A stretch of DNA of 64,000 nucleotides from Anatilimnocola floriformis (lineage in GTDB: Bacteria; Planctomycetota; Planctomycetia; Pirellulales; Pirellulaceae). Location of the stretch: positions 3,472,001 to 3,536,000 of the forward strand of contig NZ_JAMLFW010000001.1 in the NCBI RefSeq assembly GCF_024256385.1, in the 5' to 3' direction. The notes beneath the pieces are model-generated. The model worked only from the letters and a program-made list of their open reading frames with translations, had not been told where the DNA came from and did not search any database. Position numbers and translations under genes: made by a program. Shown here in pieces: positions 3,688 to 47,590 of this stretch (its first letter is position 1; the number at the start of each line of letters is the position of its first letter).

Positions 3688-6600
3688 TTACGGCACTTGC
3701 TCGGCAGACATCGCCACGAGGCAGCAGCCGCTGGCTGAACTCGGTATGTTTGCGAATTCAACAGATTGAATCTGCTTGTTCGGATAGGGATTGACCCAAG
3801 TAAACCGATTAAGGACGAGCTTACAGCCTGAGGCGTCGGCCTGCGGATTAGTGCCTTCCCATGCAGTTTCGGCATAAGGAAGCGGATGACGAGTATTTGT
3901 TTTGTGCACCCACCAATCCGAAATATTGAGTCCGTAGACGATGGGTACGATCAACTCTGATTCGTCGGTGTATCGCACCAAGTAACGACCGACGACCAGG
4001 CCTTCGTGACTTCCCGCCCAAGTGGAATGCAGGAAATGAATTCGGTGGGCATGCAGGTCGAGAGGGATCGCCTTCGTCGATTTGTTCACTTTGACATCCC
4101 AGCCGCCGGCCAGATGGACATAGCGGCTGCCGATAATGAACTGGCAACCGTTGCAGCTAAAGGATCCTTGAGGAACTGCTTCGAGGTGATTTTCGCCGGT
4201 GCCGATGCGGGTCTTCAGCAATTCGTTGGCGAACGGTGAAAGATCGATTGGAATGAATTCGCCTTCACCGGGGCCTGCTGCAGATTGTTGCTGATACATG
4301 CCGCTGACCGTAGCCAGAGCTAGATGATACTTCCAGGGCGGATTCCGTACTTGCAATGACCGCAGCGATTCGGCTGCAACCAGTTGTCGTACTTCGGCAA
4401 ACTCGAGTGTGTTATTCCAGCCAGGATCGATCAGGCTCAGAGACTGAGAGACAATTCTGGTCAGGTGTTCGTCGCTGGTGAGACCGCGAACCAACTCTGG
4501 GATCGCTTCTCGGGCGGTAGGGCCAATACGTCCTAGGGTCTGCGCGAGAGTGTAACGCTCGTCTGCTCTGCCGCGGAATGATTCGAGCAAAATGGGAACG
4601 GCGGGCTGCGCTTTTGCCCGCAAATGCCCGAGAACCCGGAAGGCGCGCTGCATGGCTTCTCTTTCTGCCTGCGTCATTTTTTGCGATTTGCCAGTCAAGC
4701 GGCCGAACGCTTCGGAAACCATGCCAGGGGGTGGCGGAATCTCCTTGAGGCATTGCGCCAGAATTTGTTCGGCGACTGCGTTTTGCTCTTCCAATGCCTT
4801 GCCAACCTGCGCGGAGGGCGCTCCCCACGGATCCAACTTATTGACCGTGTTCCAAAGCAACTCGCGGTCGGTCGCACTCAAATCGTTGCCGACGACGCGC
4901 GAGAGCAACGTGGGAAGCGCATCTGCGCCGTCGGGGCCGAAGTTGCCCAGGATCGGCGCAGCCGTTCGCCAGCGACTGCGCTCGGCGAGGCATGTGCGCA
5001 GTGCCGGCAAGACGCTGGCGGGCGTTATTCCGAAGGCTGGCAAATTGCTGAAGTAATGCAATCCGAAAATTGCCGGCGACTCGGTTGGCCGTTCGGCGAG
5101 ATCGCGGCACCATTGTTCGACTTGTTTCTGCACCGTTGGATTCGCCATCAATTTCGCGTCTTCGCGAATCGCGGCATGAAAGTACCGCGTGCGCAGCTTT
5201 TCGTCCGCAGTGGCCAATCGTTCCAACGTGGCAGGGAGCGCGGCGACGCCGATTTTGGCGAGCGCGTCTTCGGCGGAAGAAGCAACGTAATCGTCGTAAT
5301 TCGCCGATCCTTGGGAGATGTAAGAATCGAGTAGCGCTTTCAAGACCGCGGGAGTGGCGAGTTCCATTTCGCCGATGAGATGAGCGGCCGAGCGTCGCTG
5401 TTCGCGCATGGCTTCTCGCTTATCACCTACCGAGTTGGTCCCCTGAAAACGGTCTATCAAGACTTGTTGTGCGTTCTGCGAAAGCTCGTCGCACAAGTGC
5501 AGCGCGCTTGCCGCGCGAGCCCATTCTGCGGAAGCTACGCCCTGCTCAAGCTCGGCCTGCCATTGCTTGCACGCGGCGGAGGTTGCGCTGGCTTCACGCC
5601 AGGCACGGTCTTGATGATCGAGTAGTTGCACCAGATCCTTGCGGGCTGGGGAGCGCGGCAAGGTAAGCAATGGCAACAGATTTTCGAGGTCGAGCGCATC
5701 ACCAACTTCTGCGCGCAATTCAACTACCGACAGCGGGGATTGGTGCGCACTGAACAATACGCTTTGCATGGTCGCTCGTGAGAGTTCGCCCAATGCACCG
5801 GGCTCGCGGGCTGCTTTCGTCAGCACTGGCAAGAATCGAGCACCTCGCCAACCGAGCGCGGCTATGATTTTGTGAGAGGCACTGCGGGCATACAAATTGT
5901 CTGCATCTATCCCCGTCGACAGGTCGTCGAACAGCTCCGTTTCGTTGTCGAGAATGAGCGGCAAGTTGCACACTGATACCAAAATTGTGTTGTAGTTGCC
6001 GTTGTAGTAGCTATCGCTGCGACTGAGGGCGTGCAGAAATGCGGTAATAGCACTGCTGAGGTGTGCGCGAATCGATGGATCCTCACGCCACAGGGGATTC
6101 AGCGAGTCCAGCGACTTGCAGGCCACTTCACCAACGCTCACAGGGCCCGCGGTGGGTTGGCCTCGCACCAGTTCATAGATTGGCCTTTGCGCCAAGACGC
6201 TCTCAACGGAATTGATCCGCTTGAGCAGCTCAACCTGTGCCGCACGGTTCTCAGTGCCAATTTTGCCGAGCAGCCAACATAGATTTGCGACGCGAAGCGG
6301 CGGCTGATCCTGTTGAAGAGCGATGAGCACCGACGGAACAAGTTCGCGAACGAACGGGGATAGCTGCCATTCTTTTTCCAATTGAACTAGGGCTTCCAAC
6401 GCTCGTTCGTCGGGAAGGACTTGGATCAGGCCGACAATTGCCGCCTCACGGTCTGCGTCAGACAAGCTCTTAAGGGCGAGGGCAAAATCGTGTGCGCCGA
6501 TTGGCTTTCCGGTTGGCCTTTGCGACTGTTCACGGGCCTTTAATTGGGCGTCGTTCATCACGCCAAACTCAACGGGATAGCTCGCGATGACCTCGCTCAG

Positions 6601-9126
6601 CAATCGCTTCGCTTCCGCCGTTTGTAGCCAGTTTAGATCAATCGCGGCCAGACCGGCGGCCCCAACCATCCGTGGTAAATCACCTTCTGCCAACATCTTT
6701 TCTAAAGCGGGCCGAGCTTGTTTCGCGCGCGGGCCAAGCAATTTCAAGATGTCATATGCGGCCCATAACGGCTCGTATCTTTGATTTGGTGACTGACGCC
6801 CCTGCAATCGCATACCGGCCAATAACTGGGACTGCTGTTCGAGATGTGACGCCAGGAGCGGCACGGCAGCTTCCGCTTCCTTAGCTGACAACCACTGGGG
6901 ATCGATGCTGAGCAGCAGATCATCTACTGATTTAGCACGGGCCTGCAGACCTTCACGTGTTTCCGTGAACGTTATGCCTTTGAGAGCAAACACAGGTCCG
7001 ATTGCCTCGCGCGCTTCCGGCGAACTTCGCCATTTCGGATCGATGGAGTTCAATATCTGGAGAAGCCGCTCTCCATTGTTCGGCCCGGCCTCTGCGTAAG
7101 CCACAATCAATTTAGGAATCGCTCGTCTTGCGCCCGGTGACTGCGACAGCTTTGGCTGAAGTTTCGCCAGCGTTAGACGTACGTTATCAACTGCCGAGTA
7201 GGACTGCCGCGGAAAATACTCATCCGCATGAGGTTCGCCATCGCGATTGTGGATTGTACGATCTATCGCGGTGCCTTCGATTTCCAGTAGCGCTCGAATG
7301 AGGTCATTGCTAGGATCGATTTTGGCTGCAGCGAAGATGGCTTTTTCATCGTGACGCCGAACGCTCACGGCTAAGAGGTCCGCATCGTTCATCAAGACAG
7401 CGTTTTCCAGACTCAACACCAAATCGGCTGGATGACGTGGCAGCTGCTCAGTTTTTCCCAACAGAGCGGTTGCCACATGGTAATAACCCAGTCGCAAGGC
7501 AATCTGGCATTGAATGCGAGTGAGCGTTGAATTCCAGGCTTTGTTCTGGGCTTGGCGAAACGCGAAGTGCGGCCGGCGCGACTCGGGGAGGCAAACTTCC
7601 TTCAGGGCAACCTCGGGGCCCCGCGCGCGCAACGTTGCAAGTGCTCTCCCCACCGCGAACTCTTCGTAGTGAGGCTGAAAGTAATCTCGGCGGGCAAAGA
7701 ACGCGCGGCTAGACTCGGCATCTGCTACGGTGACTTGTTCCGTGAGGATTCGGCTCCAAGCCTGCTGAGCTCGCCAGCGTTCCCAGCCGATGGCTAACAC
7801 CAACAGCAAGAGTGCTGCCACCGCTGTGACGAATGGTCGGCGGTTGCGCCTCGCCCACAACAACGGCTTACGCCAGAAGGCGTCTGGCCGAGCCTCGACC
7901 GCGTGGCCGCTCAAAAAGCGTCGCAGATCGGCGATCAACGTTTGTGTTGGTAATCGCCCGCGATAACGATTATAGGGATCGGGCGCGAGGGCCCTTTGGC
8001 AGATCGCTTCGAGGTCGCGATCGATGCGGCGATTCCATTCGCGCGGCGGTCGAAACTTTCCTTTGGCGATCAACCCCCAGAGCGCGAAGTCGTTGTCAGC
8101 TTGATAGAGCGGTTGGCCGGTCAACATCACGTAGAGCAGGACACCGATGCCGTAAACGTCGATTCGATGGTCGATCGCCGAGCTAAAGCCAGGCCTTCGT
8201 TCGGGCGCTGTGAAGGAGGTGAGATTTCGCGGCAAGATGTCGGCCGCCTGAAATCCGGTCAATCGCAAACGGCCATCGCGACCGATAAAAATGTCTTCGG
8301 GCCGAAGGTTTCCATGCCGAACGCCAGCTTGATGGACCGCGAAAAGGGTCTCTGCGAGCTGGCGTGCATATTCCGCGGCGAGTCGATTATCGAGCGGCCC
8401 GCGCACAAGCTTGTCAGCGAGTGTTTCGCCATCGACACTGCCCAGCGCAAGATACGGCACGCCTTCCCATTCGCCGCTGCCGACCACCGGCAAGATGCCC
8501 GGATGATCGAGCTTGGCCGCTGTCTCGGCTTCTTGATGTAAGGCGGCCGCCAGTGCCTCCATTTTGGCAGGATCGGTTTCCAGCTTTGGCGACTTCAAGA
8601 TCACCATGCGATTGAGTTGCGTCTGCCGGGCCTTTCGCAGCAACCATGGACCGTCGTAGCCGATCTCGCTCAAGATTTCGAACTCACCGAACAACTCACG
8701 GGCCGTAGTCGGTGCCTTATCGACAATCGGCAAAGTCGCGGGCAATTCGACAAGTCCGAGCGTGGTTGCCGATTCCTTGCGAATTTTCACCAAGCGTTCG
8801 ATGACGGATTGATACTCAGGAAAGCGATCGATGTATTCGGTCGCAGCAAACTCCTTGCCGTGTCGAGCTCGCTCTTCCCACTCAATGGCGAGCAATTCTT
8901 GAAACGCAGCGAGGCGTTCTGGCGGGGAACATTTCGCTAACCAAGATTCCAAGCGGCAATTAAGATCGCGTCGCAGCTCTTGCTCGAATTCCGCGCACAG
9001 CCGATCGATGTGCAATGCCGTTTCGAGTCCCAACTGCGAAATGCGTTCGGCATCGACGGGAAGCGTCTTCTCATCACCGTGACTGCCCGGCTGCTCGAAC
9101 GGCAATGTTGGTTCGTTGGAGGTCAT
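3688..9126 (-). CDS. Giant membrane pseudokinase with long helical-repeat region
   Basis: Protein of 1812 residues; start at the ATG overlapping the upstream kinase stop (ATGA at 9123-9126). Residues about 145-410 form a protein-kinase-like domain: beta3 lysine K178 is kept, but the glycine loop is degenerate (IGYDGPW), the catalytic HRD is HGN (271-273) and DFG is TGF (290-292). Both catalytic aspartates are missing, so phosphotransfer is unlikely. A transmembrane helix follows at about 432-448. The remaining 1300 residues are alpha-helical and repetitive, with repeated E-A-I-P/A-V-P-x-L phrases like HEAT/ARM-type scaffolds, ending in a beta-rich C-terminal 180 residues. Probably a membrane scaffold partnered with the active kinase encoded just upstream. 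Confidence 0.85.
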   Translation of the reverse strand: MTSNEPTLPFEQPGSHGDEKTLPVDAERISQLGLETALHIDRLCAEFEQELRRDLNCRLESWLAKCSPPERLAAFQELLAIEWEERARHGKEFAATEYIDRFPEYQSVIERLVKIRKESATTLGLVELPATLPIVDKAPTTARELFGEFEILSEIGYDGPWLLRKARQTQLNRMVILKSPKLETDPAKMEALAAALHQEAETAAKLDHPGILPVVGSGEWEGVPYLALGSVDGETLADKLVRGPLDNRLAAEYARQLAETLFAVHQAGVRHGNLRPEDIFIGRDGRLRLTGFQAADILPRNLTSFTAPERRPGFSSAIDHRIDVYGIGVLLYVMLTGQPLYQADNDFALWGLIAKGKFRPPREWNRRIDRDLEAICQRALAPDPYNRYRGRLPTQTLIADLRRFLSGHAVEARPDAFWRKPLLWARRNRRPFVTAVAALLLLVLAIGWERWRAQQAWSRILTEQVTVADAESSRAFFARRDYFQPHYEEFAVGRALATLRARGPEVALKEVCLPESRRPHFAFRQAQNKAWNSTLTRIQCQIALRLGYYHVATALLGKTEQLPRHPADLVLSLENAVLMNDADLLAVSVRRHDEKAIFAAAKIDPSNDLIRALLEIEGTAIDRTIHNRDGEPHADEYFPRQSYSAVDNVRLTLAKLQPKLSQSPGARRAIPKLIVAYAEAGPNNGERLLQILNSIDPKWRSSPEAREAIGPVFALKGITFTETREGLQARAKSVDDLLLSIDPQWLSAKEAEAAVPLLASHLEQQSQLLAGMRLQGRQSPNQRYEPLWAAYDILKLLGPRAKQARPALEKMLAEGDLPRMVGAAGLAAIDLNWLQTAEAKRLLSEVIASYPVEFGVMNDAQLKAREQSQRPTGKPIGAHDFALALKSLSDADREAAIVGLIQVLPDERALEALVQLEKEWQLSPFVRELVPSVLIALQQDQPPLRVANLCWLLGKIGTENRAAQVELLKRINSVESVLAQRPIYELVRGQPTAGPVSVGEVACKSLDSLNPLWREDPSIRAHLSSAITAFLHALSRSDSYYNGNYNTILVSVCNLPLILDNETELFDDLSTGIDADNLYARSASHKIIAALGWRGARFLPVLTKAAREPGALGELSRATMQSVLFSAHQSPLSVVELRAEVGDALDLENLLPLLTLPRSPARKDLVQLLDHQDRAWREASATSAACKQWQAELEQGVASAEWARAASALHLCDELSQNAQQVLIDRFQGTNSVGDKREAMREQRRSAAHLIGEMELATPAVLKALLDSYISQGSANYDDYVASSAEDALAKIGVAALPATLERLATADEKLRTRYFHAAIREDAKLMANPTVQKQVEQWCRDLAERPTESPAIFGLHYFSNLPAFGITPASVLPALRTCLAERSRWRTAAPILGNFGPDGADALPTLLSRVVGNDLSATDRELLWNTVNKLDPWGAPSAQVGKALEEQNAVAEQILAQCLKEIPPPPGMVSEAFGRLTGKSQKMTQAEREAMQRAFRVLGHLRAKAQPAVPILLESFRGRADERYTLAQTLGRIGPTAREAIPELVRGLTSDEHLTRIVSQSLSLIDPGWNNTLEFAEVRQLVAAESLRSLQVRNPPWKYHLALATVSGMYQQQSAAGPGEGEFIPIDLSPFANELLKTRIGTGENHLEAVPQGSFSCNGCQFIIGSRYVHLAGGWDVKVNKSTKAIPLDLHAHRIHFLHSTWAGSHEGLVVGRYLVRYTDESELIVPIVYGLNISDWWVHKTNTRHPLPYAETAWEGTNPQADASGCKLVLNRFTWVNPYPNKQIQSVEFANIPSSASGCCLVAMSAEQVP

Positions 9127-12100
9127 TTCGCTACCCTCTCGCGCAAGAGCCAAGAGACGATGGCCGTCACTAGTAACATAGGCAGGGAGAGCAGGAAAAA
9201 CTTGCTAAAGAAAATGATCGTCCACGTCGGCAACACCGGCAACCCCGTGAAATCTCTAAAGACTTGCTCGGCGTGCGTGAGGAGCGGCCCAGGACCGCAG
9301 TAGCCAGTGAGATCGAGCGCGATTCGAGTCTCGCTGAACGGAATGAGTGCAGCCACCAGCAGTGTGGAGCAACCGGCGCAGGCGACCGCCGTGGGAACGA
9401 ATAATCGCGCCCACTTGCCGCTCGCGCCGCGAAGTCGCGTGATGCGAGCTTGCATCCGCTGCAGCAACGCGCCAACAGAAATGGCTAATGGCACGACGAT
9501 GAGTAGCGCCGGCACGAAGCCACCATCGCGATTGAACCACGTCCAAAACATGTTTGTTTTGTCGAAATTCGAAGAATGACGAGCCGTGGTTGTCATTACA
9601 TAGACTACGATAAAGCCAGCAATGGCAAGCAGCAGTGTGCCTCGCCAATACCAGCGCAGCGATTCCGATTTGCCTGCCACGGCTTCGCCGCCAAATGCGA
9701 ACAGCATTCCCACCGGAGCGCCAACAAGAGCACTGAGCAGCGTGCAAATATTCACGGCTGGCTCATTGAAATTGATAAGCAGTTCATCGGTTGGCACATC
9801 CCAGGTAGCGTGTTTGAACATACTCACGATGGGGCCCACGATGCTGATCACGCCCCAGATCATTCCAGAAGCCAGAATCTGCGGCCAGTTGGGCCCAGGC
9901 GAAACGGTTCTCATCATCGCGATCACGATTGTGACGAAGATTGCTTCTTGCAAATTTCCCAACAGGAAAGCGACGCCGCCCGTCGCTAACGCCAGGACCT
10001 CGGGATACGCCACATCAAACCGCCGCAACTGCTCTAGCCAGGTCAGCCGCGCAGCGCGGGGCGTGTGTCCCTGCAACCAACGATCTAAATCGGCGGCAAG
10101 TTCGGTTGCTGACGCATAGCGATCGGCCTCCTTTTTCTGAAGGCAGCGAATACAGATCGCTTCCAGATCGAAGTCGACTGCTGGATTGAGCGAGCGCGGC
10201 GTAGGAGGGTCGGCTTCGATCAGTAGCGTCAGGGTCTCCATCGCATTTTCGGAATGAAACGGAGGACGCCCCGTCAAACAGACGAACAAAACTGCGCCGA
10301 GTGCCCAAACATCCGCTGGCGGGCCGGCGCGCTTGGCGTCCAAGGCTTGCTCCGGCGCCATGTACGCCGGCGTGCCCATGACTGCGCCGGTTTGAGTAAG
10401 GCGGCAAACCGTTTCGTAAGTGTTGAGGAACGGAAAATCGAGCGGTGCTTCGCTGTCGGCCTCGAGTACATCGAGCCGCCGCGCGAGTCCAAAGTCGGTC
10501 ACTTTCACGCTGCCATCCCGGTCGAGCAAGATGTTGCCCGGCTTGAGATCGCGATGCACCACGCCGCGTTCGTGCGCAAAGGCTGCCGCAATAGCGGCCT
10601 GTTGCACAAAGTAGGCTGCTTGCCGGGCCTCGATTGGTCCCGTCGCAAGTCGCTGAGCTAGGCTCTGGCCTTCGATATAGGCCATCGTGAAATACAGCTC
10701 TCCTTTTGCACTGCCGAACTCATACACGGGAACGATCGTAGGATGATCGAGGCCTGCCGCGGACTCGGCTTCTTCCTGAAACCGTCGCATCGCGCCACCG
10801 TGCGAACTCGCGCCGGTAAGAATAGTTTTCAGAGCTACCACGCGACCGAGTCGTTTGTGACGCGCTTTGTAAACGCGTCCCATGCCGCCGCGACCGATGA
10901 CATCCAGGATTTCGTACTGGCCGAAATCAATCTCGGCAAAACTAGTGGACGGCTTGCTGCCTTCCGTGGAATCGATCGTTGCCGGCAACTCTACCTGCTG
11001 TCGGACTTCGACTTCATTGTTTGTTTCTGCCAAGCTTTCCGAGACCGTCGGATCGGCCGCATTCCAACGGTCGACTGCATGTTCCAGTGTGCTTTCGTAT
11101 TTCATCACCCCACGCCAGAACCACACACTGAAGATCCGGATGCCTACGCCCAGCGGTGCCGCCACAGCAAAGGCGAGGAGCCACATCCCGCCCCGCACTA
11201 ATGCGTCGCGCGGACCAACATCGGCGAGCAAAGAAAGCACGAACAACACTCGTTGGTCGAGGGGCAACGCGCGATAGGCAATATTGTTACCGGACCCCAG
11301 CGCGAACAGACCGGGTCGAACCATGCGCGTGATCGGCGGCCACTCGCCGGAAAAAGCGGCAAAGCAGCCCCACAACACAATCCCAGCCACTAGCACGCAT
11401 CGCCAACGCTGCTTCAGCACGTACTCGCGCAGCTCTGTACTCAAGCCAATCATGAGCAGCAGCAACAGCACCGTGCTCTGCGGAGCAATGATGAATCCAA
11501 ACACCAGGAGCGGCAGACCTAGCCAATTCCACGAGCTGAGGCGCGTGCCTTCTTCGGCTTCCAATTCGTTGGGCCGCAGAATGTCGTAGGCAGTTACCGA
11601 AAGCAACTGCAACAGCGATCCCAAGGGAAGCGCCATCAGCAGCAACCAGAGGTGTCGACAGATGGCGATTCGAATCGACGCAACATCTTCGGATTGATCC
11701 ATCGAGGTGAAGGCGACCAGCAGACGCGTCAACCCAGCATCTTCGGTGGCATCGCCACTCTCAAAGAAGTTGAAGCTGCCAGGAACGAACGAGATACCCG
11801 TCAGTAGCTGGTCGAATCCAGGAAACGGCGAGCCCCGTTTGGCGAGCAATTGAGTCAAACTAATGAAGGTTGCGAGCACGACTGTTGGCCACCAACCACC
11901 CCAGAGAAAGCCGAAGTCTTGGTCGTAGTCGTACAACGAGCGGCCAAACATGAAGGCAAGCACCAGGCACACGCCGATGCCAAATATGCTGTTGAGCATC
12001 TGCAAGTCGGATGACTCGGTAAACAAGATCAGCATCACACTGCCGATCAGGAGCGGCACGACAAACCGCGCGTCTGAATCAATTCGCGCCGCAAACCTCA

Positions 12101-12218
12101 CCGGCAGCAAAGTGCCGCAACCGACTACCAGCCAATACGAGCAAGCCGCGAACTGCCCCATGAGAAACAAGACCAGCGACAGCGAGAAAGCAGCGATGGC
12201 AACCGGATAAAACATCAT
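9123..12218 (-). CDS. Polytopic membrane Ser/Thr protein kinase (active)
   Basis: Protein of about 1031 residues. The N-terminal 390 residues contain roughly nine hydrophobic segments; the kinase domain lies at about 430-700 and is complete: GRGGMGRVY loop, VALKTIL lysine, VVHRDLKPGNILL catalytic loop, VTDFGLAR, GTPAYMAPEQA; a second hydrophobic block of about five or six helices follows. Kinases of this phylum usually place a kinase first and one helix after, so a kinase sandwiched between two membrane blocks is unusual. The start is uncertain: ATG at 12218 or 12215 is preferred over a TTG at 12254; a weak AGGA lies about 14 bases upstream. It overlaps the giant pseudokinase gene by ATGA and follows the smaller pseudokinase by about 50 bp. 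Confidence 0.88.
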   Translation of the reverse strand: MMFYPVAIAAFSLSLVLFLMGQFAACSYWLVVGCGTLLPVRFAARIDSDARFVVPLLIGSVMLILFTESSDLQMLNSIFGIGVCLVLAFMFGRSLYDYDQDFGFLWGGWWPTVVLATFISLTQLLAKRGSPFPGFDQLLTGISFVPGSFNFFESGDATEDAGLTRLLVAFTSMDQSEDVASIRIAICRHLWLLLMALPLGSLLQLLSVTAYDILRPNELEAEEGTRLSSWNWLGLPLLVFGFIIAPQSTVLLLLLMIGLSTELREYVLKQRWRCVLVAGIVLWGCFAAFSGEWPPITRMVRPGLFALGSGNNIAYRALPLDQRVLFVLSLLADVGPRDALVRGGMWLLAFAVAAPLGVGIRIFSVWFWRGVMKYESTLEHAVDRWNAADPTVSESLAETNNEVEVRQQVELPATIDSTEGSKPSTSFAEIDFGQYEILDVIGRGGMGRVYKARHKRLGRVVALKTILTGASSHGGAMRRFQEEAESAAGLDHPTIVPVYEFGSAKGELYFTMAYIEGQSLAQRLATGPIEARQAAYFVQQAAIAAAFAHERGVVHRDLKPGNILLDRDGSVKVTDFGLARRLDVLEADSEAPLDFPFLNTYETVCRLTQTGAVMGTPAYMAPEQALDAKRAGPPADVWALGAVLFVCLTGRPPFHSENAMETLTLLIEADPPTPRSLNPAVDFDLEAICIRCLQKKEADRYASATELAADLDRWLQGHTPRAARLTWLEQLRRFDVAYPEVLALATGGVAFLLGNLQEAIFVTIVIAMMRTVSPGPNWPQILASGMIWGVISIVGPIVSMFKHATWDVPTDELLINFNEPAVNICTLLSALVGAPVGMLFAFGGEAVAGKSESLRWYWRGTLLLAIAGFIVVYVMTTTARHSSNFDKTNMFWTWFNRDGGFVPALLIVVPLAISVGALLQRMQARITRLRGASGKWARLFVPTAVACAGCSTLLVAALIPFSETRIALDLTGYCGPGPLLTHAEQVFRDFTGLPVLPTWTIIFFSKFFLLSLPMLLVTAIVSWLLRERVAK

Positions 12219-12269
12219 TAGGTCTGCTACTGATCCTGCTGAAGGACACCGCAAGGAAGTGACGAATAA

Positions 12270-14270
12270 CTAGCCGGTCAATGACCACAACGGCGGCAAC
12301 ACAATCGCCGCGATCAAGATCGCGCCAAAAGTAAAACCGACCAGCAGCCAGCCTTCGTTGTCTGCCCAAGACTTCGTCTGCTGCGATTCATTTTCGGAAC
12401 GCAGTGCGAGTCGCCATCGTGGCGGCAGACGATTGACAATCAGGTGCGCCACGACGCCTACGCCTGCAATGACAACCAGCATTGGCAGCAGACGATACGA
12501 CCAGAGCAGATCCTGCTCGATGCGTGTCGCAATCAGATACGCCACTGCCGTTCCCAATGCACCGCCCAGCAGCACAATCGCCAATGTCGGAGCACGCAGG
12601 CAAACTGCGAGCAACAGCGAGCCAAACGTCGCGCCAGCAATCAGCAGGATTGTGGGCACTGGGCTCGATGTAAGCGATCCAGCAAGCCAACCCCCAGCTG
12701 GATCGAACGCTTGACGTGGAGTGAGCGTGGTGAACACAAAAAAACTGCTGCTGGTAGGAATCGCGGCAACGGGCATAGTTCGCCAGAGCAACGTTACAGC
12801 TAGTACGCTCAATAAGACCATTAGCTGCGCGTGTCCGGGAGCTTTTCGTTTCATTCCGCTCATCGATTGCGCTGCGTCGCTCAAAAAACTTCCGAGCGGC
12901 GGCGTGCATGCGGCGCCAGCGAAGAACATGGTAACTCTGCGGCACCAAAGAAGCGGTGTTCTGAGGTCTGGGAAGTCTTGCACAAACAGAAAGAGCCAAT
13001 ACGAGAGGAGGTAGCACACAACGGCGGCGGCAAACCACCATCGCCATTGGCTACGCCAACGCGCATCGCGAGTAGACAGCGACGACCAGCCGATGCCCAA
13101 CAGTCCTCCGATCAGTGGCATCCCGATCAAGGAAATCCACAGCGGCGGAAGGAAAGCAGCCAGGCTTTGCAGTGCGGCTCCCCACGACGTCTGTAACTTG
13201 CCGGCCGAAGTGCTTGCCACTACCGGCAAGAGCAGGCCCGTAAGCAATCCATATCCGCAGCCCACGCACGCGCCGATGAGCGTGGGGAACTTTTGAATTT
13301 GGAGTTTGATGAACGCGCCGAGGATGAGGCCGGTCAGCGCGCCCGCCGGTGCGATGGCTTCGAAGTGCCAGCGGCGCGAGTTCAATGGAAAATTGTGGAA
13401 CGCGATTTCCGGGCTCAGTAACAGCAGCACAACTGCTACAGCAGCCAACGTCACAAACGCATACGGCGCATCGGCAAACACCGTCGCCGCTGCTCCCAGT
13501 GGTCCCAAGGTGCGCGAACGGATTGTCTCCGCACGCTCGCAGCGATCTAAATCTTCACCCACCTCCGCGACAGTTGCGTATCGCTCGGAAAGCGATGTCG
13601 CCAAGCAGCCTCGACAGATTTCGGCCAGATCGCGAGGCAGGTCCGGCCGCAGTAAAGCAATATCAACGATCGAATGCGGCGATTTTCTCACCGGCGCCGG
13701 AGCTTGCCCCGTGAGCGACGCGTAGAGGATGCCGCCAAGGCGATAAATGTCTGCTTGAGTTGCGTCGTCATTGACGGGAGGAGCATAGGGATCGTCAATG
13801 CGCTCGGCAGATCGCGGCCAACCGGCATCCAGGATGTAAACCGTATTGTCTTTGGACAGAAGAACGTCGCTCGGCTTCAAGCTACCGTGCGTGCGACGTT
13901 GCTCGTGCAATGCAGTGAGCGTAGCCGCAACTTTTCGAACGATTTCAATCGCCTGTTGATTCGACCTTGGGCCCGAACTGCGCAGGGTCGCCGCCAGGCT
14001 GGTAGCTTCAATCCAAGGGCTGACGAGTAAAATCTTCTCAGCTACTTGATGCACTGCGATTAAGCGAACGTAGCCAGCGACATCAGTCGGTAACGGCGGA
14101 TCATGCGGGTTTGGTTTTTGATTCAAAACCTTGATCGCCACCGGTTCGTTGGTCGCCTGGCAACGTCCGCGATAAACCGGGCCAGTTTCTCCCAATCCAG
14201 CCAGTTCGGCGAAGGAGTAGCCCAGGCTTTTCAGCTCAGTTTGCAACTGCTGCTCGATAGTTCCTGCCAT
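12270..14270 (-). CDS. Membrane pseudokinase
   Basis: Protein of 666 residues. Residues about 18-255 are a protein-kinase fold: the glycine loop GLGETGPVY (25-33) and K47 are intact and DAG (148-150) keeps the metal-binding aspartate, but the catalytic HRD is HGS (128-130) and the KPxN asparagine is D. The activation segment is short and has no APE. It therefore may bind ATP but should not transfer phosphate. From about residue 264 to the end there are about ten hydrophobic helices. Only nine bases separate it from the FHA gene, so both are co-transcribed. Its membrane part and that of the neighbouring kinase could pair within the bilayer (inference). Confidence 0.85.
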   Translation of the reverse strand: MAGTIEQQLQTELKSLGYSFAELAGLGETGPVYRGRCQATNEPVAIKVLNQKPNPHDPPLPTDVAGYVRLIAVHQVAEKILLVSPWIEATSLAATLRSSGPRSNQQAIEIVRKVAATLTALHEQRRTHGSLKPSDVLLSKDNTVYILDAGWPRSAERIDDPYAPPVNDDATQADIYRLGGILYASLTGQAPAPVRKSPHSIVDIALLRPDLPRDLAEICRGCLATSLSERYATVAEVGEDLDRCERAETIRSRTLGPLGAAATVFADAPYAFVTLAAVAVVLLLLSPEIAFHNFPLNSRRWHFEAIAPAGALTGLILGAFIKLQIQKFPTLIGACVGCGYGLLTGLLLPVVASTSAGKLQTSWGAALQSLAAFLPPLWISLIGMPLIGGLLGIGWSSLSTRDARWRSQWRWWFAAAVVCYLLSYWLFLFVQDFPDLRTPLLWCRRVTMFFAGAACTPPLGSFLSDAAQSMSGMKRKAPGHAQLMVLLSVLAVTLLWRTMPVAAIPTSSSFFVFTTLTPRQAFDPAGGWLAGSLTSSPVPTILLIAGATFGSLLLAVCLRAPTLAIVLLGGALGTAVAYLIATRIEQDLLWSYRLLPMLVVIAGVGVVAHLIVNRLPPRWRLALRSENESQQTKSWADNEGWLLVGFTFGAILIAAIVLPPLWSLTG

Positions 14271-14279
14271 AGAAGTTAG

Positions 14280-14705
14280 CTACTGTGCCTCCGCCTGTTC
14301 CCAGCCCCAGCCGAAGGAAAACTGGGTCCAAGACAATCGCCACCAGCAACGAAACCAATAGTTGCGCTGCTCTCGGTACCACGTCGAGTTGTCGGCAGGC
14401 TCGGCATCAAGGCGAGGTTTCATTTCAACCTCGATCTTTTCATCACCAATCTCGAGCACGTGTTGACCAAGCAGCGGCAGGCTGCAGGAAACGCGCCGGC
14501 CGTCACAACGCGTGCCGTTTTGCGAATTCAGATCTTCGACGAAGTATTGACCAGCCACCGCAAACAGCCGTGCGTGCCAACGACTGGCGCCGCGACCAAG
14601 CAGAGCGATTGCGTGGCGAGATGATCGGCCGATGACCACTTCCTGCCCAACGAGCGCCAGGGAACGGCAACCTTCGCGGTCTCGCCAATTAATGGTGCCC
14701 AGCAT
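14280..14705 (-). CDS. FHA-domain phosphothreonine-binding protein
   Basis: Protein of 141 residues using the ATG at 14705 (MLGTINW), which is preferred over an upstream in-frame start at 14804 because the FHA fold begins at once. Visible FHA signatures: VVIGRSSRH, the conserved S-R-W-H of loop 3-4, and LNSQNGTRCDG, i.e. the G-R, S-x-x-H and N-G residues that contact phosphothreonine. The C-terminal 30 residues are rich in tryptophan and may sit at the membrane. FHA domains read phosphothreonine made by Ser/Thr kinases; its place between a sigma factor and three kinase-like genes points to a phospho-relay or docking role for the encoded kinase. Confidence 0.85.
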   Translation of the reverse strand: MLGTINWRDREGCRSLALVGQEVVIGRSSRHAIALLGRGASRWHARLFAVAGQYFVEDLNSQNGTRCDGRRVSCSLPLLGQHVLEIGDEKIEVEMKPRLDAEPADNSTWYREQRNYWFRCWWRLSWTQFSFGWGWEQAEAQ

Positions 14706-14868
14706 CAGATTCTCACTCTTCGACAGGCCTTGAGTTGTGCGACGCCGCACATGTCCTGATCTAAGATGTGGAAAACTCCACCGGCCCCGCCAGGCAATTA
14801 GCAAATTACGCGCGCAATTCGGTTTATGCTACGCATCCGCAAAGACGCGGAGTTTTCTAACGAAATCG

Positions 14869-15471
14869 TCACTGATTAGCAGGATACTCTTGCCAGCAAC
14901 GGCGAATGAGGCCGAGGCGTCGCTCCAACGTTCGCAAGCTGCAACCCAACCGATCGCTTAACTCCGAGTTCGACAGCCCTTCTAGCTTTCCACGCGCAAC
15001 AGGTTGCAGTTCTGGACTGAGCAAGCCCAGCAAATAATTGCACTGCTCTTCCATCTCCACCACAAATTCGGGCGAAGGTTCGTTACCGATGGCTTGCGCC
15101 AGGAGGTTAGCTTCTTCATTCTCCCCAAAGTCGGCCTCTCCAACGACTTTCCCAGCGCCGCGTTTCTGCGCCGCTTGTTTGGCGGCGTGCTTGGTCACTT
15201 TGCGAAAGGTCAAAACCATGAGAAGCGGCCACAAACTATCGTGACCATTCAACTCGGGAAACTTGCCATTCTGGATGCCACGGCAGAACGTATCGAAGAC
15301 GCTCAGCGCGACATCTTCTTCGTCCACAACTTTTCGCAGTCGCGAATTCAATCGTGACTGTGCCAGCTGGGCGAGCCGCGCATAATAACGGTTCCAAAGT
15401 GCCTCGGGAGCGTCCTTGTCACCTCGTCTGAGCAGGCTTATCAGATTTTCAATCGTGGATTGCGAGTCCAT
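14869..15471 (-). CDS. ECF-type RNA polymerase sigma factor (planctomycete Sigma70_ECF group)
   Basis: Protein of 200 residues. Region 2 lies at about 10-90 (LISLLRRGDKDAPEALWNRY and the DEEDVALSVFDTFCRG segment), and region 4 helix-turn-helix at about 145-195 (LSNSELSDRLGCSLRTLERRLGLIR). Such sigma factors direct polymerase to a small regulon; no anti-sigma gene is next to it. It heads a minus-strand series followed by FHA, pseudokinase, kinase and pseudokinase genes, with 163 bp to the FHA start. GAGGGAGAA precedes the ATG at 15471. The likely input is the kinase module rather than a membrane anti-sigma factor (inference). Confidence 0.88.
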   Translation of the reverse strand: MDSQSTIENLISLLRRGDKDAPEALWNRYYARLAQLAQSRLNSRLRKVVDEEDVALSVFDTFCRGIQNGKFPELNGHDSLWPLLMVLTFRKVTKHAAKQAAQKRGAGKVVGEADFGENEEANLLAQAIGNEPSPEFVVEMEEQCNYLLGLLSPELQPVARGKLEGLSNSELSDRLGCSLRTLERRLGLIRRCWQEYPANQ

Positions 15472-15602: not shown

Positions 15603-15878
15603 TTACAAGAACTCGGAGCTAAGTTCGGGAATAAGCGACCCCAGGAGGGTCAACAAGTAGGCGTTCCGGACGGGCACCTTGAACCGGAAGGGACGAGCCA
15701 AGTACTGACGCTCGACACGTTCCTCGACGGTGCGATCGCTCGTCAGCCACTCGGGCCGATCGCCCAGGATCCAAACCTTGCCCAGGCCCTCGACAAAACG
15801 TTCCGCGCTCCGCAGGGTATACCGCAACTCTTCATCGCCATGCTGGGAGTGGCGGAAGAGAACAAGGACATCGGTCAT
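15603..15878 (-). pseudogene. Truncated Stealth-like sugar-phosphate transferase fragment
   Basis: A 91-residue frame with ATG at 15878 and AAGGTG about nine bases before it. The sequence VLVLFRHSQHGDEELRYTLRS followed by WILGDRPEWLT resembles the N-terminal catalytic region of Stealth/capsule-type glycosyl-phosphotransferases or related tail-associated glycosyltransferases, which begin with a line such as E-L-R-Y-S-L-R-S. Those proteins are several hundred residues long; here a TAA ends the frame after LIPELSSEFL and nothing downstream in the three frames continues the family. It is read as a remnant, although an active short protein cannot be excluded. The family assignment is from memory of motif patterns. 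Confidence 0.45.
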
Positions 15879-15897
15879 ATCACCTTGGTAAACTAAT

Positions 15898-16335
15898 TCA
15901 TTTTCGCAGCCACACATCGACCACGCCAGGAGGGCCGTTGAACGTAAACTTGTACTTCGTCATGGGGATCGGCTTATAGTCCGATTTGTCCAAGACTGGG
16001 ACTTTGCTTCCGTCCTCAGGAGGGCTGCTACCTCCGGTCCACTCCACGAACTCGAGCTTCATCCGGTCCGATCCCTTCCCCTCCAGAAACACGCCTGTGT
16101 TGTCTCCGAAATCGGCAAGGCCGGCAAACAGAAATTTGCTGGAAACTCGCCGGGATGTCGGCAGTGTTTGTGGCACGCCATCGATGAGCACCATCGCGCG
16201 CGGATCCGACGAGCGAATTCTGAGCAGCACCGTCGTCCGCATATACCACCACTTCATCGCGACCACGGAGACCGCGATGAGTGTGATCGCGATGAAGACA
16301 AACTTCAAACTGAATGCGAATCTGGGGAAGTACAT
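15898..16335 (-). CDS. Membrane-anchored hypothetical protein
   Basis: Protein of 145 residues with one N-terminal transmembrane helix (about 7-28, FVFIAITLIAVSVVAMKWWY) preceded by the FAFSLKF segment common at the N-terminus of planctomycete inner-membrane proteins. The remaining 115 residues are predicted outside the cytoplasm and contain a strand-rich part (VLLRIRSSDPRAMVLIDGVPQ, then KYKFTFNGPPGVVDVWL). No catalytic motif or known family is recognised. It starts only three bases after the end of the preceding minus-strand gene and probably shares its transcript. Confidence 0.65.
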   Translation of the reverse strand: MYFPRFAFSLKFVFIAITLIAVSVVAMKWWYMRTTVLLRIRSSDPRAMVLIDGVPQTLPTSRRVSSKFLFAGLADFGDNTGVFLEGKGSDRMKLEFVEWTGGSSPPEDGSKVPVLDKSDYKPIPMTKYKFTFNGPPGVVDVWLRK

Positions 16336-43671: not shown

Positions 43672-46584
43672 TCACCGCGATGTGAGTTGGGCGAACGTTT
43701 GCGCTGCCTTCACGGCGGCAAACGGCTTTCGCTGGTACCAATGCTCCGGCGGTTGAAAGCCGGTTTGCAGCAGTTCTTGAATCAGCAGAAGTGCGTCATC
43801 GCAGTTCTGCCTCGCTAGGTTTTGATCGGCGGCCGGTGTTGCTTCGGCGGCGGCGGCGAGCACGACGAGTTCTTCGGCGACCGAAAACAATCGCTGCTGA
43901 TCGCCGGCCCACAACTCTTTGCGAGCCAGCACGATTTGGCGAGCGTCAGCAAACTTTCCCGTCTGTCGCAGGATGCGGGCGAGGTTGTAGTAATGCTTGC
44001 TCAGCAGCGTGCGATAGCGAGCAACATCTTCCGCTCGTTCGCAGGCGATTTTTTGATGCTCGATCGCCGAGCGGAACGCGACTGCGGCATCTTCACCGCG
44101 GCCTTCGTCCTCCAGGATGATTCCCTGGTTGTTGTACACACCGCCAATGCTGCTGCGCAGTTCCAGATTGTCGGGCGATTGAGCGATGAGTTCGAGGTGA
44201 TACTGCAACGACAGCGCGAACGAGCGCTCGGCCGCCGGGAGTTGCTTGAGACGCGTTTGGGCCAGGCCCAGGTTGTTGCAACTGACGGCCAAGTTATGTC
44301 GGTACGACCTTTGTTCTGGCGCTTGATTTACGAGTTGCGTTTGAATAGCAATCGCTTGTTCATAGGCCTCGATCGATTCCACCGATTGATTGAGGCGGGC
44401 GCGGGCGGCGCCGAGGTTATTCAGAGTTAAGGCTAGTTCGCTTTGCAGACGCAGGTCGCGAGGCCGATTGTCGACGGCCGTTTTCAGCTGGTTGCGGGCC
44501 GCGAGGTGATATTCCACGGCACGGTCGGCGTGAGTATCAAGCAGGGAAGCGCCGAAGTTGTTATAGACCGCGCTCAACTTGCACAATGCGTTTTGATCTT
44601 CAGGCTGCTCGCGGAGTTGCTCTTCATACAGGCGAATAGCTTCGCGATACGCGCTGCGATCGGCATCGACTTGATTCGTCTTCGCCTGCAACAAGCCGAG
44701 ATTGGAAAAGCTGGCGGCCAACTCCGGCAGAACGTTGGGATGCTTACGTGCGATCAGCTGTTGTTGCAGCTTGATCGCCTGTTCGAAGCAGCGCTGCGCA
44801 TCGGGCGATTTGCCAGCGCGAGTCAGGGATAAGCCGAAGTTGTTGAAGCACACCGCGAGACGCTGTTGATAATCCAAGCGTGCGGGATGAGCGGCTACCA
44901 GTTCTCGCGCCAGCACCAATCCGCGTTCATGCGCTGCGAGCGCTTCCTCGGGCGTGCCGATCTCATCGTTCAGGACGCCGATCTTGCTGTAGGTCAGCGC
45001 GAGGTCGTCTTGCAGAGTGGAATCACCCACGGCGTCGCGGGCGAACTCATGAAAATAATCAAGCGTGTCCTGCAGCAACTCGCGGCGGACATCGGCAGTG
45101 CCGGGGATTCCTTCCAGACGTTCGGCCAGTTGCGTACCAAAGCGATCGACGACTTCCATGGCGCGCGCGAGATGCTTTTCGGCGCGTTCTTCGTTCTGAA
45201 CGGCTTTGCTCTTCTCTTGCGCAATTCTGAAATTTCCGATCGCCAGGCCCACGCCGAGGAGAAGTGTGATTGCGGTGGCGACAATCGCAATCCGCTGATG
45301 CTTCACACTCCAGCGAGCGAGGCGTTCCCACAGCGAAACGGGCTGCGCGAGAACCGCCTGCCCTTCTACCACACGCCGCAAGTCATCTGCAAAATCCTGC
45401 GCTGTCGCGTACCGATCGTCGCGGCTGCTGCGCAGCGCTTTGAGAATGACCGTTTCGAGCGCAATTGGAATATCAGGCCGATGGCGCCGCAGCGGCGTCG
45501 GTTCAAAGGAGTCGAGCGGGCGGCTGGCATGTGCGTCGTCGTGACTGACGACGGGTTCCAGGGTCAGCAGTTCATACAGCGTGGCCGCGAGCGAGTAGAT
45601 ATCGGTGCGATGATCGACGAGCGCCGATTTGCCGGTCGCTTGTTCGGGGCTCATGTAACGAAACGTGCCGATCACGTCGCCAGTTTGCGTGAGCGTTTTA
45701 TTGTGCCGGCAGCGCGCTAGTCCGAAGTCGGTGATCCAAACCTTGCCTTGCTGATCGACCATCAAGTTCGAAGGCTTGATGTCGCGATGGACCACGCCAT
45801 ATTCGTGCGCGGCGTGCAGTGCTTCAGCGGCGGCGATGCCCAGGCGCGTGATGGTCTCGTAGTATCGCCGCTGATGCCGCGCTGAATCAGTCAGAAACGA
45901 GCGACATGTGGTCGAGCAAATTTCATCGAGAGCGCGGTCGACGGAGTTTTCGCCGGGCTGCTCTTCGAGTTCTTCCACGGTCAGCCGAGCCTGCCGGCGG
46001 AGATCGCGAATCGCGCGATCGAGCGGCAAGCCGTCGATGAACTGCATGGCGTAATAGTGCACGCCGCGCTCCGCGCCGATGGCGAACACCGGCACGATGT
46101 GCGGATGCTGAATCTGCGCGGCCGCTTGGGCTTCGTTCTTAAAGCGGGCAATCTGTCGCGCATCGAGCACGGCAGCAAACGGCAGGACTTTGATCGCCAC
46201 GCGCCGGCCGAGTGAGATCTGCCGTGCTTCGTACACCACGCCCATGCCGCCGCGGCCAATTTCGCAGCCGAGCACAAAATCGCCGAGACGCCGTTCGTTG
46301 TCGTGCGCTTCACTCTTCGGCTCGACCGTTGCGGTCGTATCTTGGAAGCCGGCCGACATGCCCTGCAGATTGGTGAGGCTGGCGAGATAAAGTTGCAGGG
46401 CTTCGGCGAGGTCGGGATGCTCGCTCAGGATCGCGTGCGGATTGGCGGGCACGCCCTGCTCGAGCTGCGACAGATAATCGTCGAGGATCCGCGTCAAACG
46501 TTCGCGCTGCTCTTCGGTGAGCGCGCGCAACGCCGGCGATTCACCATGGCGAGTATTCAGCTCTAGCGTCGAAACATCGGTCAC
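43672..46584 (-). CDS. Ser/Thr protein kinase with C-terminal TPR region
   Basis: Protein of 970 residues if the GTG at 46584 is used (GGGAG 10-14 bases upstream); the ATG at 46659 lies inside the sigma gene. The N-terminal 100 residues are helical; the kinase domain is about 100-375 with GRGGMGVVY, VAIKVLP, VVHRDIKPSNLM, ITDFGLAR and MSPEQA all intact. A single transmembrane helix follows (about 425-445, IAIVATAITLLLGVGLAIG), then some ten tetratricopeptide-like repeats (LALTLNNLGAAR, LAVSCNNLGLAQ, LAVCFNNFGLSL phrases). Typical planctomycete architecture: cytoplasmic kinase, external TPR sensor/interaction domain. Confidence 0.92.
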   Translation of the reverse strand: MTDVSTLELNTRHGESPALRALTEEQRERLTRILDDYLSQLEQGVPANPHAILSEHPDLAEALQLYLASLTNLQGMSAGFQDTTATVEPKSEAHDNERRLGDFVLGCEIGRGGMGVVYEARQISLGRRVAIKVLPFAAVLDARQIARFKNEAQAAAQIQHPHIVPVFAIGAERGVHYYAMQFIDGLPLDRAIRDLRRQARLTVEELEEQPGENSVDRALDEICSTTCRSFLTDSARHQRRYYETITRLGIAAAEALHAAHEYGVVHRDIKPSNLMVDQQGKVWITDFGLARCRHNKTLTQTGDVIGTFRYMSPEQATGKSALVDHRTDIYSLAATLYELLTLEPVVSHDDAHASRPLDSFEPTPLRRHRPDIPIALETVILKALRSSRDDRYATAQDFADDLRRVVEGQAVLAQPVSLWERLARWSVKHQRIAIVATAITLLLGVGLAIGNFRIAQEKSKAVQNEERAEKHLARAMEVVDRFGTQLAERLEGIPGTADVRRELLQDTLDYFHEFARDAVGDSTLQDDLALTYSKIGVLNDEIGTPEEALAAHERGLVLARELVAAHPARLDYQQRLAVCFNNFGLSLTRAGKSPDAQRCFEQAIKLQQQLIARKHPNVLPELAASFSNLGLLQAKTNQVDADRSAYREAIRLYEEQLREQPEDQNALCKLSAVYNNFGASLLDTHADRAVEYHLAARNQLKTAVDNRPRDLRLQSELALTLNNLGAARARLNQSVESIEAYEQAIAIQTQLVNQAPEQRSYRHNLAVSCNNLGLAQTRLKQLPAAERSFALSLQYHLELIAQSPDNLELRSSIGGVYNNQGIILEDEGRGEDAAVAFRSAIEHQKIACERAEDVARYRTLLSKHYYNLARILRQTGKFADARQIVLARKELWAGDQQRLFSVAEELVVLAAAAEATPAADQNLARQNCDDALLLIQELLQTGFQPPEHWYQRKPFAAVKAAQTFAQLTSR

Positions 46585-46591
46585 GCGCGAT

Positions 46592-47236: not shown

Positions 47237-47590
47237 GCAATTAACGCGTCACCGGGCTTTGATGCGAATCGTAGGGGAAACAGAACACCGCTTAGAGGAG
47301 AAAATGCCAGCAACAGTTCCCTCCAGACAAGAATACGCTGGTTCCGTCTGGCTGGCAGTCGCTCCTTTCTTTCTAACCACCGAAATGCGCCAGAGAAGCG
47401 GTGCGGATCTTGGAATGCGCGGATCGCACCAGTGATTTGCCTTCATTGCTGGCGCCGCAGTGCGACAAAGTGACGTCCACCAGTGGCGGAATCCCGCGTC
47501 GACCTTAACGATCGGGGGAAAATTAACGATTGTGCCGATTGTGCCCGATAAAGACGTTAGCTCCGATCAGAACGTCCTTCAGCAAATCCC
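47237..47590. other. Intergenic region between divergent genes
   Basis: About 350 bp holding the promoters of the sigma/kinase operon (-) and the barrel gene (+). I could not fix any -35/-10 pair and see no convincing hairpin or small gene. Confidence 0.4.

What the first reader, a model, noticed from the sequence alone, without database searches (positions are those of the whole stretch)
3688..15471. Sigma factor-FHA-pseudokinase-kinase-pseudokinase operon
Five consecutive minus-strand genes encode an ECF sigma factor, a phosphothreonine-binding FHA protein, a membrane pseudokinase (HGS instead of HRD), a polytopic membrane Ser/Thr kinase with all catalytic motifs, and a 1812-residue pseudokinase scaffold (HGN instead of HRD, TGF instead of DFG). 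Three of four junctions are tight: 9 bp, about 50 bp, and a 4-bp overlap. Sigma/kinase pairs are known in planctomycetes, but one active kinase flanked by two inactive ones plus an FHA reader in one operon is not a combination I recognise. It could be a new transmembrane phospho-signalling module controlling a sigma factor, with pseudokinases acting as allosteric activators or ATP-binding scaffolds.
Basis: partly seen in the sequence, partly recalled or inferred. Interest (0 to 1): 0.87.

Follow-up and report, generated by a model that had tools for sequence, protein, structure and literature searches.

The report
Sigma-factor operon with two dead kinases
A planctomycete carries a gene row in which a transcription switch (sigma factor) is followed by a phosphate-reading protein, one kinase that looks able to work and two that look broken, and one broken kinase keeps the domain that usually marks this sigma factor's partner, suggesting that docking and catalysis were divided between proteins.

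Summary
In detail: five consecutive minus-strand genes, 3688-15471, encode an ECF sigma factor, an FHA protein, a membrane pseudokinase (HGS, DAG), an intact kinase between two membrane blocks, and a single-pass pseudokinase (HGN, TGF). Of 60 kinase domains in this genome 3 lack the HRD aspartate; two are here. No other genome searched shows the row; sigma-kinase neighbours are ordinary (19 of 37 sigma rows). New here: the last gene carries a ~67-residue N-domain without Pfam match that sits on the gene directly downstream of 29 of 31 relatives of this sigma factor, against 8 of 60 other sigma rows. So the last gene, dead by its motifs and 5.7 kb away, looks like the sigma factor's original partner. 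Best explanation: a split ECF-STK module, with docking and sensing on a dead kinase, catalysis in trans, and the FHA protein reading the phosphates. Anatomy is shown; the signalling steps are inferred. Without orthologs, selection on the pseudokinases is untested. New variant of a known kind.

The parts
14869..15471 (-). ECF sigma factor (P0005, 200 aa); DEED at residues 50-53, Ser57 where the canonical DxxDxxQE motif has its Glu
   Evidence: Pfam Sigma70_ECF 2.9e-37; DxxD acidic in 33 of 34 and Ser in 32 of 34 distinct relatives, itself included; Ser57
14280..14705 (-). FHA protein (141 aa from ATG), FHA domain about 14469-14639, Trp-rich C-terminal tail that may touch the membrane (inference)
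   Evidence: Pfam FHA 1.3e-10; GR, SRWH and NSQNG core motifs; tail read
12270..14270 (-). Pseudokinase A (P0003, 666 aa): kinase fold 13533-14213, then about 10 TM helices 12297-13460
   Evidence: Pkinase 9.5e-14; HGS, DAG, no APE; model pLDDT 72 shows no alpha-C helix, in a stretch that is itself low-confidence; TM scan
9123..12218 (-). Ser/Thr kinase with all catalytic motifs (P0002): about 7 TM helices, kinase domain 10113-10916, about 7 TM helices
   Evidence: Pkinase 8.9e-48; VALK, HRD, DFG, APE intact; TM scan
3688..9126 (-). Pseudokinase B (P0001, 1812 aa from ATG): N-domain, degenerate kinase domain, one TM, extracytoplasmic HEAT-like region and C-terminal domain
   Evidence: Pkinase 1.9e-19 and sub-threshold HEAT_EZ 0.036; HGN, TGF; TM
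8812..9012 (-). N-domain of pseudokinase B, proposed sigma-docking domain
   Evidence: on the gene directly downstream of 29 of 31 P0005-like sigma factors vs 8 of 60 other sigma rows (Fisher 2.8e-14); 56.4 bits with its own row left out
7963..8634 (-). Degenerate kinase domain of pseudokinase B (HGN for HRD, TGF for DFG, altered Gly loop, short activation segment)
   Evidence: 145.5 bits with the operon rows left out, below all 28 partner kinases (190-335)
7780..7836 (-). Single TM helix of pseudokinase B; five K/R before it and three after, so kinase inside
   Evidence: hydropathy scan
3694..4272 (-). C-terminal domain (about 190 aa) of B, found on other proteins of the order
   Evidence: 26-34% identity in other genomes

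Best explanation
A split, membrane-bound ECF-sigma/kinase module. In the common form of this family the sigma gene is followed at once by a protein with a short N-domain plus a kinase. Here the N-domain partner (pseudokinase B) has kept the N-domain and an extracytoplasmic HEAT-like part but lost the catalytic motifs, and FHA, pseudokinase A and a kinase with intact motifs lie between the two genes. Proposed working: B holds the sigma factor through its N-domain; an outside signal is felt by B and/or by the membrane blocks of A and the kinase; the kinase phosphorylates A and/or B (possibly also the sigma factor at Ser57); the FHA protein binds the phosphothreonine and so changes the B-sigma contact, freeing or activating the sigma factor. 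SHOWN: the five genes, the motif losses, the topology prediction, the N-domain/sigma neighbourhood. INFERRED: that the N-domain binds the sigma factor, that A and B are catalytically dead, who phosphorylates whom, what the FHA protein binds, what is sensed, and the direction of control.
For: N-domain on the gene directly downstream of 29 of 31 P0005-like sigma factors vs 8 of 60 other sigma rows (Fisher 2.8e-14); among the window's ORFs only B has it. In 2 of the 29 (one genus) the partner has no kinase domain, so the N-domain is the constant part. B's N-domain scores within the partner range (56.4; 30 partners 12-90) while its kinase scores below all 28 partner kinases (145.5; 190-335). Both pseudokinases have shortened activation segments. 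The FHA core motifs are kept. Tight junctions and intact long frames. Sigma factors of non-ECF43 groups keep DAED-like motifs and may work differently from EcfP (PMC8999054 section 3.4).
Against: No ortholog of the five-gene set was found, so neither co-conservation nor purifying selection on A and B can be shown. In this genome alone the N-domain association, counted by kinase gene, is weak: 4 of 16 kinases with an upstream sigma gene carry it vs 2 of 44 without, B being one of the two (P 0.038). The tree gives B little help: its 16-row group (92/96, an open fork) holds 7 sigma-linked kinases among 14 non-operon rows but only one of the five other N-domain kinases of this genome. The N-domain may only mark a subfamily of kinase genes; the loci compared are related, so the Fisher value overstates. 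The operon genes have lower GC3 (0.60-0.66 vs 0.68-0.75) and codon scores than eight window controls, as young, foreign or decaying genes would (the codon table was made from those controls, which favours them). The sigma gene is 163 bp from the next gene and may have its own transcript. The promoter scan found no consensus site in the region (0, 4.8 expected), which says nothing.
Confidence: 0.4

Rival explanations
1. The active kinase directly phosphorylates the sigma factor (at Ser57 in sigma region 2.2 or elsewhere), as PknT does EcfP, with A and B as allosteric activators and the FHA protein as adaptor.
For: Ser57 sits where the canonical DxxDxxQE motif has its Glu and is Ser in 32 of 34 relatives, so phosphate could restore the charge. 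Kinase-sigma phosphorylation is shown for ECF43 (PMC13147305 passages).
Against: The ECF43 signature, loss of DxxD, is absent: DEED is kept, and DxxD is acidic in 33 of 34 relatives. The linker that carries phosphosites in EcfK has no Ser/Thr over 39 residues here (stretch printed). The active kinase lacks the N-domain. In this genome Ser at that place is found in only 3 of 19 kinase-linked sigma rows.
Confidence: 0.25
2. PknB-MviN-FhaA-like logic: the kinase phosphorylates the membrane pseudokinase A, the FHA protein binds it and controls a membrane function, and the sigma factor is only co-transcribed.
For: Same parts list: PknB-like kinase, pseudokinase on a polytopic membrane protein, FHA protein (PMC11898655 passages).
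Against: The membrane half of A has no MurJ/MviN match in Pfam at E <= 0.1, follows its pseudokinase whereas I recall the reverse order for MviN, and matched in 1 of 392 phylum genomes, its own. Of six neighbouring window ORFs searched, one has a sub-threshold Stealth match (an envelope family as I recall) and none a recognised cell-wall synthesis family.
Confidence: 0.15
3. A decaying kinase cluster: A and B are former sigma-linked or tandem kinases on the way to loss, with no present function.
For: No orthologs found; long branches; lower GC3 and codon scores.
Against: Frames of 666 and 1812 codons without a stop, a 4-bp start/stop overlap, B's N-domain inside the partner range, retained beta-3 lysines.
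Confidence: 0.12
4. A and B are weakly active or perform another transfer reaction, as some HRD-less kinases do.
For: Both keep the VAIK lysine and A keeps the DFG aspartate as DAG; ErbB3 and SELO are discussed as precedents in PMC3281104 (passages).
Against: B also lost the DFG aspartate; A lost the APE region and probably alpha-C.
Confidence: 0.08

Closest known systems
Planctomycete ECF-sigma/STK pairs (ECF59, ECF61, ECF62 and ECF217 have planctomycete examples in a table passage of PMC8999054)
   Same: ECF sigma gene with an acidic DAED-like motif encoded beside a Ser/Thr kinase gene, predicted there to act by phosphorylation
   Different: here the gene next to the sigma factor is an FHA protein, the usual kind of partner is catalytically dead by its motifs and 5.7 kb away, and an active kinase and a second pseudokinase lie between
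EcfP-PknT / EcfK-PknS (ECF43)
   Same: sigma factor and Hanks-type kinase encoded together
   Different: this sigma factor keeps DxxD (DEED) and lacks the ECF43 Thr; extra pseudokinases and FHA protein
PknB-MviN-FhaA of mycobacteria (passages of PMC11898655)
   Same: active PknB-like kinase, membrane pseudokinase, FHA reader
   Different: no MviN flippase domain found, PASTA-kinase model not over its cut-off, gene row shared with a sigma factor; domain order of MviN recalled
STRAD-LKB1 and JAK JH2-JH1 (recalled, eukaryotic)
   Same: dead kinase fold beside a live one
   Different: no relation tested; analogy only

Membership tests
ECF-sigma/STK module | ECF sigma factor | tested here: met
   PF07638 2.9e-37
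ECF-sigma/STK module | Ser/Thr kinase encoded beside the sigma gene | tested here: met
   met in the loose sense: the intact kinase is the fourth gene of the row, after FHA and a pseudokinase
ECF-sigma/STK module | acidic DAED-like motif kept (non-ECF43 groups) | tested here: met
   DEED; 33 of 34 distinct relatives, itself included, acidic at both ends
ECF-sigma/STK module | membership of a numbered ECF group | not testable with these tools
   no ECF group models on hand; the classification paper is not held
ECF43 (EcfP/EcfK) | DxxD lost, Thr phosphosite in sigma 2.2 | tested here: not met
   DEEDVALS at residues 50-57
Pseudokinase (K-D-D criterion) | at least one of VAIK-K, HRD-D, DFG-D missing | tested here: met
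   A lacks HRD-D; B lacks HRD-D and DFG-D
Pseudokinase | no phosphotransfer | not testable with these tools
   needs an assay
PknB-MviN-FhaA | FHA domain with phosphothreonine-binding core | tested here: met
   GR, SRWH, NSQNG; binding itself not tested
PknB-MviN-FhaA | pseudokinase joined to a MurJ/MviN flippase | tested here: not met
   no such Pfam match to P0003 at E <= 0.1
PknB-MviN-FhaA | PASTA kinase | tested here: not met
   NF033483 matches only its kinase part (positions 7-279 of 563), 269 bits against a cut-off of 450

The most novel reading that the evidence does not exclude
A signalling module in which the sigma factor's own partner kinase has become a dead docking-and-sensing subunit through its N-domain, catalysis has moved to a separate membrane kinase, and a second pseudokinase plus an FHA reader relay the phosphate. 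By extension, in the whole P0005-like family the sigma factor is controlled by the N-domain contact rather than by phosphorylation by its partner.
Probability: 0.33. Interest if true: 0.75.

Novelty: new variant of a known kind. Interest (0 to 1): 0.5.

Why it matters
[quoted passage not shown] This operon, and two loci in which the same kind of N-domain partner has no kinase domain, separate docking from catalysis by nature, if the N-domain does dock. It is a small, well-bounded target for a binding test that would show which part of these widespread modules touches the sigma factor.

Tried and rejected
Orthologs of the operon: none found in 199 family genomes, 396 order genomes, 392 phylum genomes or two pattern scans of genome contigs, which find close relatives only. 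Limits: the genome samples are drawn from larger groups, the tool scored only the best few candidates per genome (up to 6, 2, 4), and long match lists were cut. Matches other than self in the non-kinase parts were B's C-terminal domain and short HEAT-like stretches and one 31% fragment with stops; the genome-contig scan gave one distant kinase (26%, L172). Proteins of genus g44 that matched A slightly beyond its kinase domain proved, in the five taken out, to be intact-motif kinases beside sigma genes. Synteny in the congener G053: the flanking genes match at unrelated places, so no empty site could be read. Promoter and terminator scan uninformative; no Rfam match. My first FHA profile, from one seed, failed (2 hits) and was replaced. 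Fold of B's C-terminal domain: single-sequence model too poor to use (pLDDT 40). Anti-phage defence: PADLOC matches of the kinase domains cover the kinase part only and are taken as generic similarity. Tandem duplication inside the operon: the tree does not join the three kinases (0% of 200 bootstrap trees), but B and the active kinase share an open 16-row group and its bootstrap had not settled, so a B-kinase duplication is not excluded (56 of 60 domains used, short ones dropped).
Full report
CHECK. All are on the minus strand: sigma 15471-14869; FHA 14705-14280 (ATG start; the mechanical ORF starts earlier); pseudokinase A 14270-12270; kinase 12218-9123; pseudokinase B 9126-3688. Junctions are 163, 9 and 51 bp and a 4-bp overlap. 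In each of the five genes the true frame has a higher codon score than all five other frames, by a small margin over one antisense frame; the scores, 0.576-0.615, are below those of eight control genes (0.647-0.761), but the codon table was made from those controls. GC3 is 0.60-0.66 against 0.68-0.75. Pfam assigns Sigma70_ECF, FHA and three Pkinase domains.

CATALYTIC STATE. I aligned the kinase domains of this genome: 60 distinct domains, one duplicate row dropped. Ten of 60 fail the K-D-D test, several of them partial alignments or probably non-Hanks folds; three of 60 lack the HRD aspartate: A, B and a lone gene at C1:1516777. For comparison, 0 of 70 domain rows in loci held from other genomes lack it and 1 of 70 lacks the DFG aspartate (a biased sample drawn mostly by similarity to A and to the sigma factor, with at least three genes counted twice). 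The operon is the only run of three same-strand kinase genes less than 1 kb apart among the 60; the two other such pairs are all K-D-D. A keeps VAIK-Lys and the DFG Asp (DAG) but lacks HRD Asp and APE. An AlphaFold model from four window kinases (mean pLDDT 72) shows five N-lobe strands with no helix between beta-3 (42-49) and beta-4 (72-76), though residues 55-68 are below pLDDT 50; Foldseek ranks M. tuberculosis PknB first (TM 0.73). B keeps Lys and alpha-C Glu but has HGN, TGF and an altered Gly loop. Both have short activation segments. Pseudokinases as such are not rare in large bacterial kinomes: 11 of 99 in Myxococcus xanthus (PMC6791715 passages), and 525 of 610 kinases of Uabimicrobium were counted as probably functional (PMC11032199 passages).

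TOPOLOGY. A hydropathy scan gives one TM in B at 440-458 with five K/R before it and three after, hence kinase and N-domain inside and about 1360 residues outside; about 7+7 TM in the kinase; about 10 in A. The FHA protein ends in a Trp-rich tail (read). HEAT-like is a weak call: PF13513 at E 0.036, under its cut-off.

CONSERVATION. In 199 genomes of the family the sigma factor has matches in 180, own included. A has only kinase-level matches among the listed rows (best 34% over 213 residues); five of the rows reaching slightly beyond the kinase domain (genus g44) were taken out and proved kinases with intact motifs beside sigma genes. The FHA protein gave domain-level matches in all 199 (best other 37% over 75 residues). 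The membrane half of A matched in 1 of 392 phylum genomes, its own. The kinase's N-terminal membrane block matched in 2 of 396 order genomes, own plus a 31% fragment with stops, and its C-terminal block in 1 of 199 family genomes, own. B's region after the kinase gave matches in 74 of 396 order genomes, own included; those listed are to the C-terminal ~190 residues or to short HEAT-like stretches, and the congener has none. Two pattern scans of named genomes found no ortholog. These searches score only a few candidates per genome and sample larger groups, so a distant homolog could be missed; an ortholog in a sampled genome should not be.

BASE RATE OF SIGMA-KINASE PAIRS. Of 37 sigma rows examined in this genome (rows with poor alignment dropped; one is probably a false alignment), 19 lie within 1.5 kb of a same-strand kinase gene; a second such pair lies in this very window (43672-47248). 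Of 17 FHA and 28 Sigma70_ECF places only the window's pair lies within 4 kb by their coordinates. Neighbouring sigma and kinase genes are therefore ordinary; FHA plus two pseudokinases is not.

THE N-DOMAIN. B residues about 48-114 (numbering from the first TTG) have no Pfam match at E <= 0.1. A profile seeded from B alone finds the same domain in proteins encoded directly downstream of sigma factors: of 31 P0005-like sigma factors (80 bits or more, window's own excluded) 29 have it, one has a kinase without it and one has no partner; of 60 other sigma rows, a few of them perhaps not sigma factors, 8 have it, 26 have a kinase without it and 26 none (75 of 92 rows printed). Fisher 2.8e-14, overstated because the loci are related and 29 of the 31 came from one search with this sigma factor. 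By kinase gene, in other genomes 31 of 44 with an upstream sigma gene carry it against 2 of 23 without (P 1.3e-6); in this genome only 4 of 16 against 2 of 44, B being one of the two (P 0.038). In two of the 29, both genus g33, the partner has no kinase domain; it holds an SRHHA stretch that resembles FHA weakly (9.4 and 7.3 bits; no Pfam match for either; no significant PDB match for the one tried, best E 0.96). With its own row left out of the profile, B's N-domain scores 56.4 bits (30 partners: 12-90), while its kinase domain scores 145.5 (28 partner kinases: 190-335, some cut by locus ends). The tree adds little: B falls in an open 16-row group (92/96, long branch, bootstrap not settled) with the operon's active kinase and 14 others, 7 of them sigma-linked, but only one of the five other N-domain kinases of this genome is in it. 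The simplest reading is that B is the sigma factor's original partner, catalytically lost but still docking, and that FHA-A-kinase came to lie between them. That the N-domain binds sigma is inference.

SIGMA FACTOR. Residues 50-57 read DEEDVALS. The ECF43 mechanism needs loss of DxxD and a Thr (passages of PMC13147305; section 3.4 of PMC8999054); that is not met. Ser replaces the Glu of DxxDxxQE in 32 of 34 relatives, itself included, a candidate phosphosite. In this genome Ser at that position occurs in 3 of 19 kinase-linked and 0 of 18 unlinked rows.

VERDICT. Real and well described; a single case; a new variant of ECF-STK modules with a PknB-MviN-FhaA-like parts list. The N-domain association is the most useful result because it predicts which protein touches the sigma factor.

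PAPERS. PMC8999054: listing with the start of the abstract, passages, and the whole of section 3.4. PMC13147305, PMC11032199, PMC11898655, PMC6791715, PMC3281104: listing with the start of the abstract, and passages. The MviN pseudokinase paper (Gee 2012) and the ECF reclassification paper are not held and are known only through citing papers or recall. STRAD, JAK, the MviN domain order and the nature of Stealth proteins are recalled. That nothing like this is in print rests only, in an open-licence library.

Noticed in passing
window 43672-47248 (-): An ordinary sigma factor plus intact kinase pair (HRD, DFG); the C-terminal part looks TPR-like by eye; its kinase lacks the N-domain.
   Followed up: partly
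L034:2136-2954 and L033:671-1663 (also L163, L162): N-domain proteins directly downstream of a P0005-like sigma factor without a kinase domain, with a weak FHA-like SRHHA stretch instead.
   Followed up: partly
G000:C1:1516777-1520334 (in L147): A lone 1186-aa kinase-fold protein with HGG for HRD and DFA for DFG; no sigma row in the stretch taken out around it.
   Followed up: no
G000:C1:2073226-2078763 (in L159): An 1846-aa kinase-fold frame with TGF for DFG and no clear N-lobe, beside genes that look like response regulators by eye.
   Followed up: no
G000:C1:2811329-2814333 (in L129): Intact kinase followed by a divergent kinase (HGD, IDIGS); the second joins pseudokinase A weakly in the tree (87/52), flagged there as a possible long-branch join.
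   Followed up: partly
window 15603-15917 (-): A 104-aa ORF just upstream of the sigma gene with a Stealth_CR2 match under the family cut-off (E 1.4e-4), perhaps a truncated gene.
   Followed up: no
window 3694-4272 and loci L092-L104, L106-L108: A ~190-aa domain at the C-terminus of B, without Pfam match, found on varied proteins of the order; the fold prediction failed.
   Followed up: partly
G000:C1:1975315 and C1:2005850 (L124, L128): Two nearly identical kinase domains about 30 kb apart (branch lengths 0.033 and 0.012), probably a recent duplication.
   Followed up: no
P0005-like sigma factors (34 distinct sequences, window's own included): Ser in place of the conserved Glu of the sigma 2.2 DxxDxxQE motif in 32 of 34.
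   Followed up: partly
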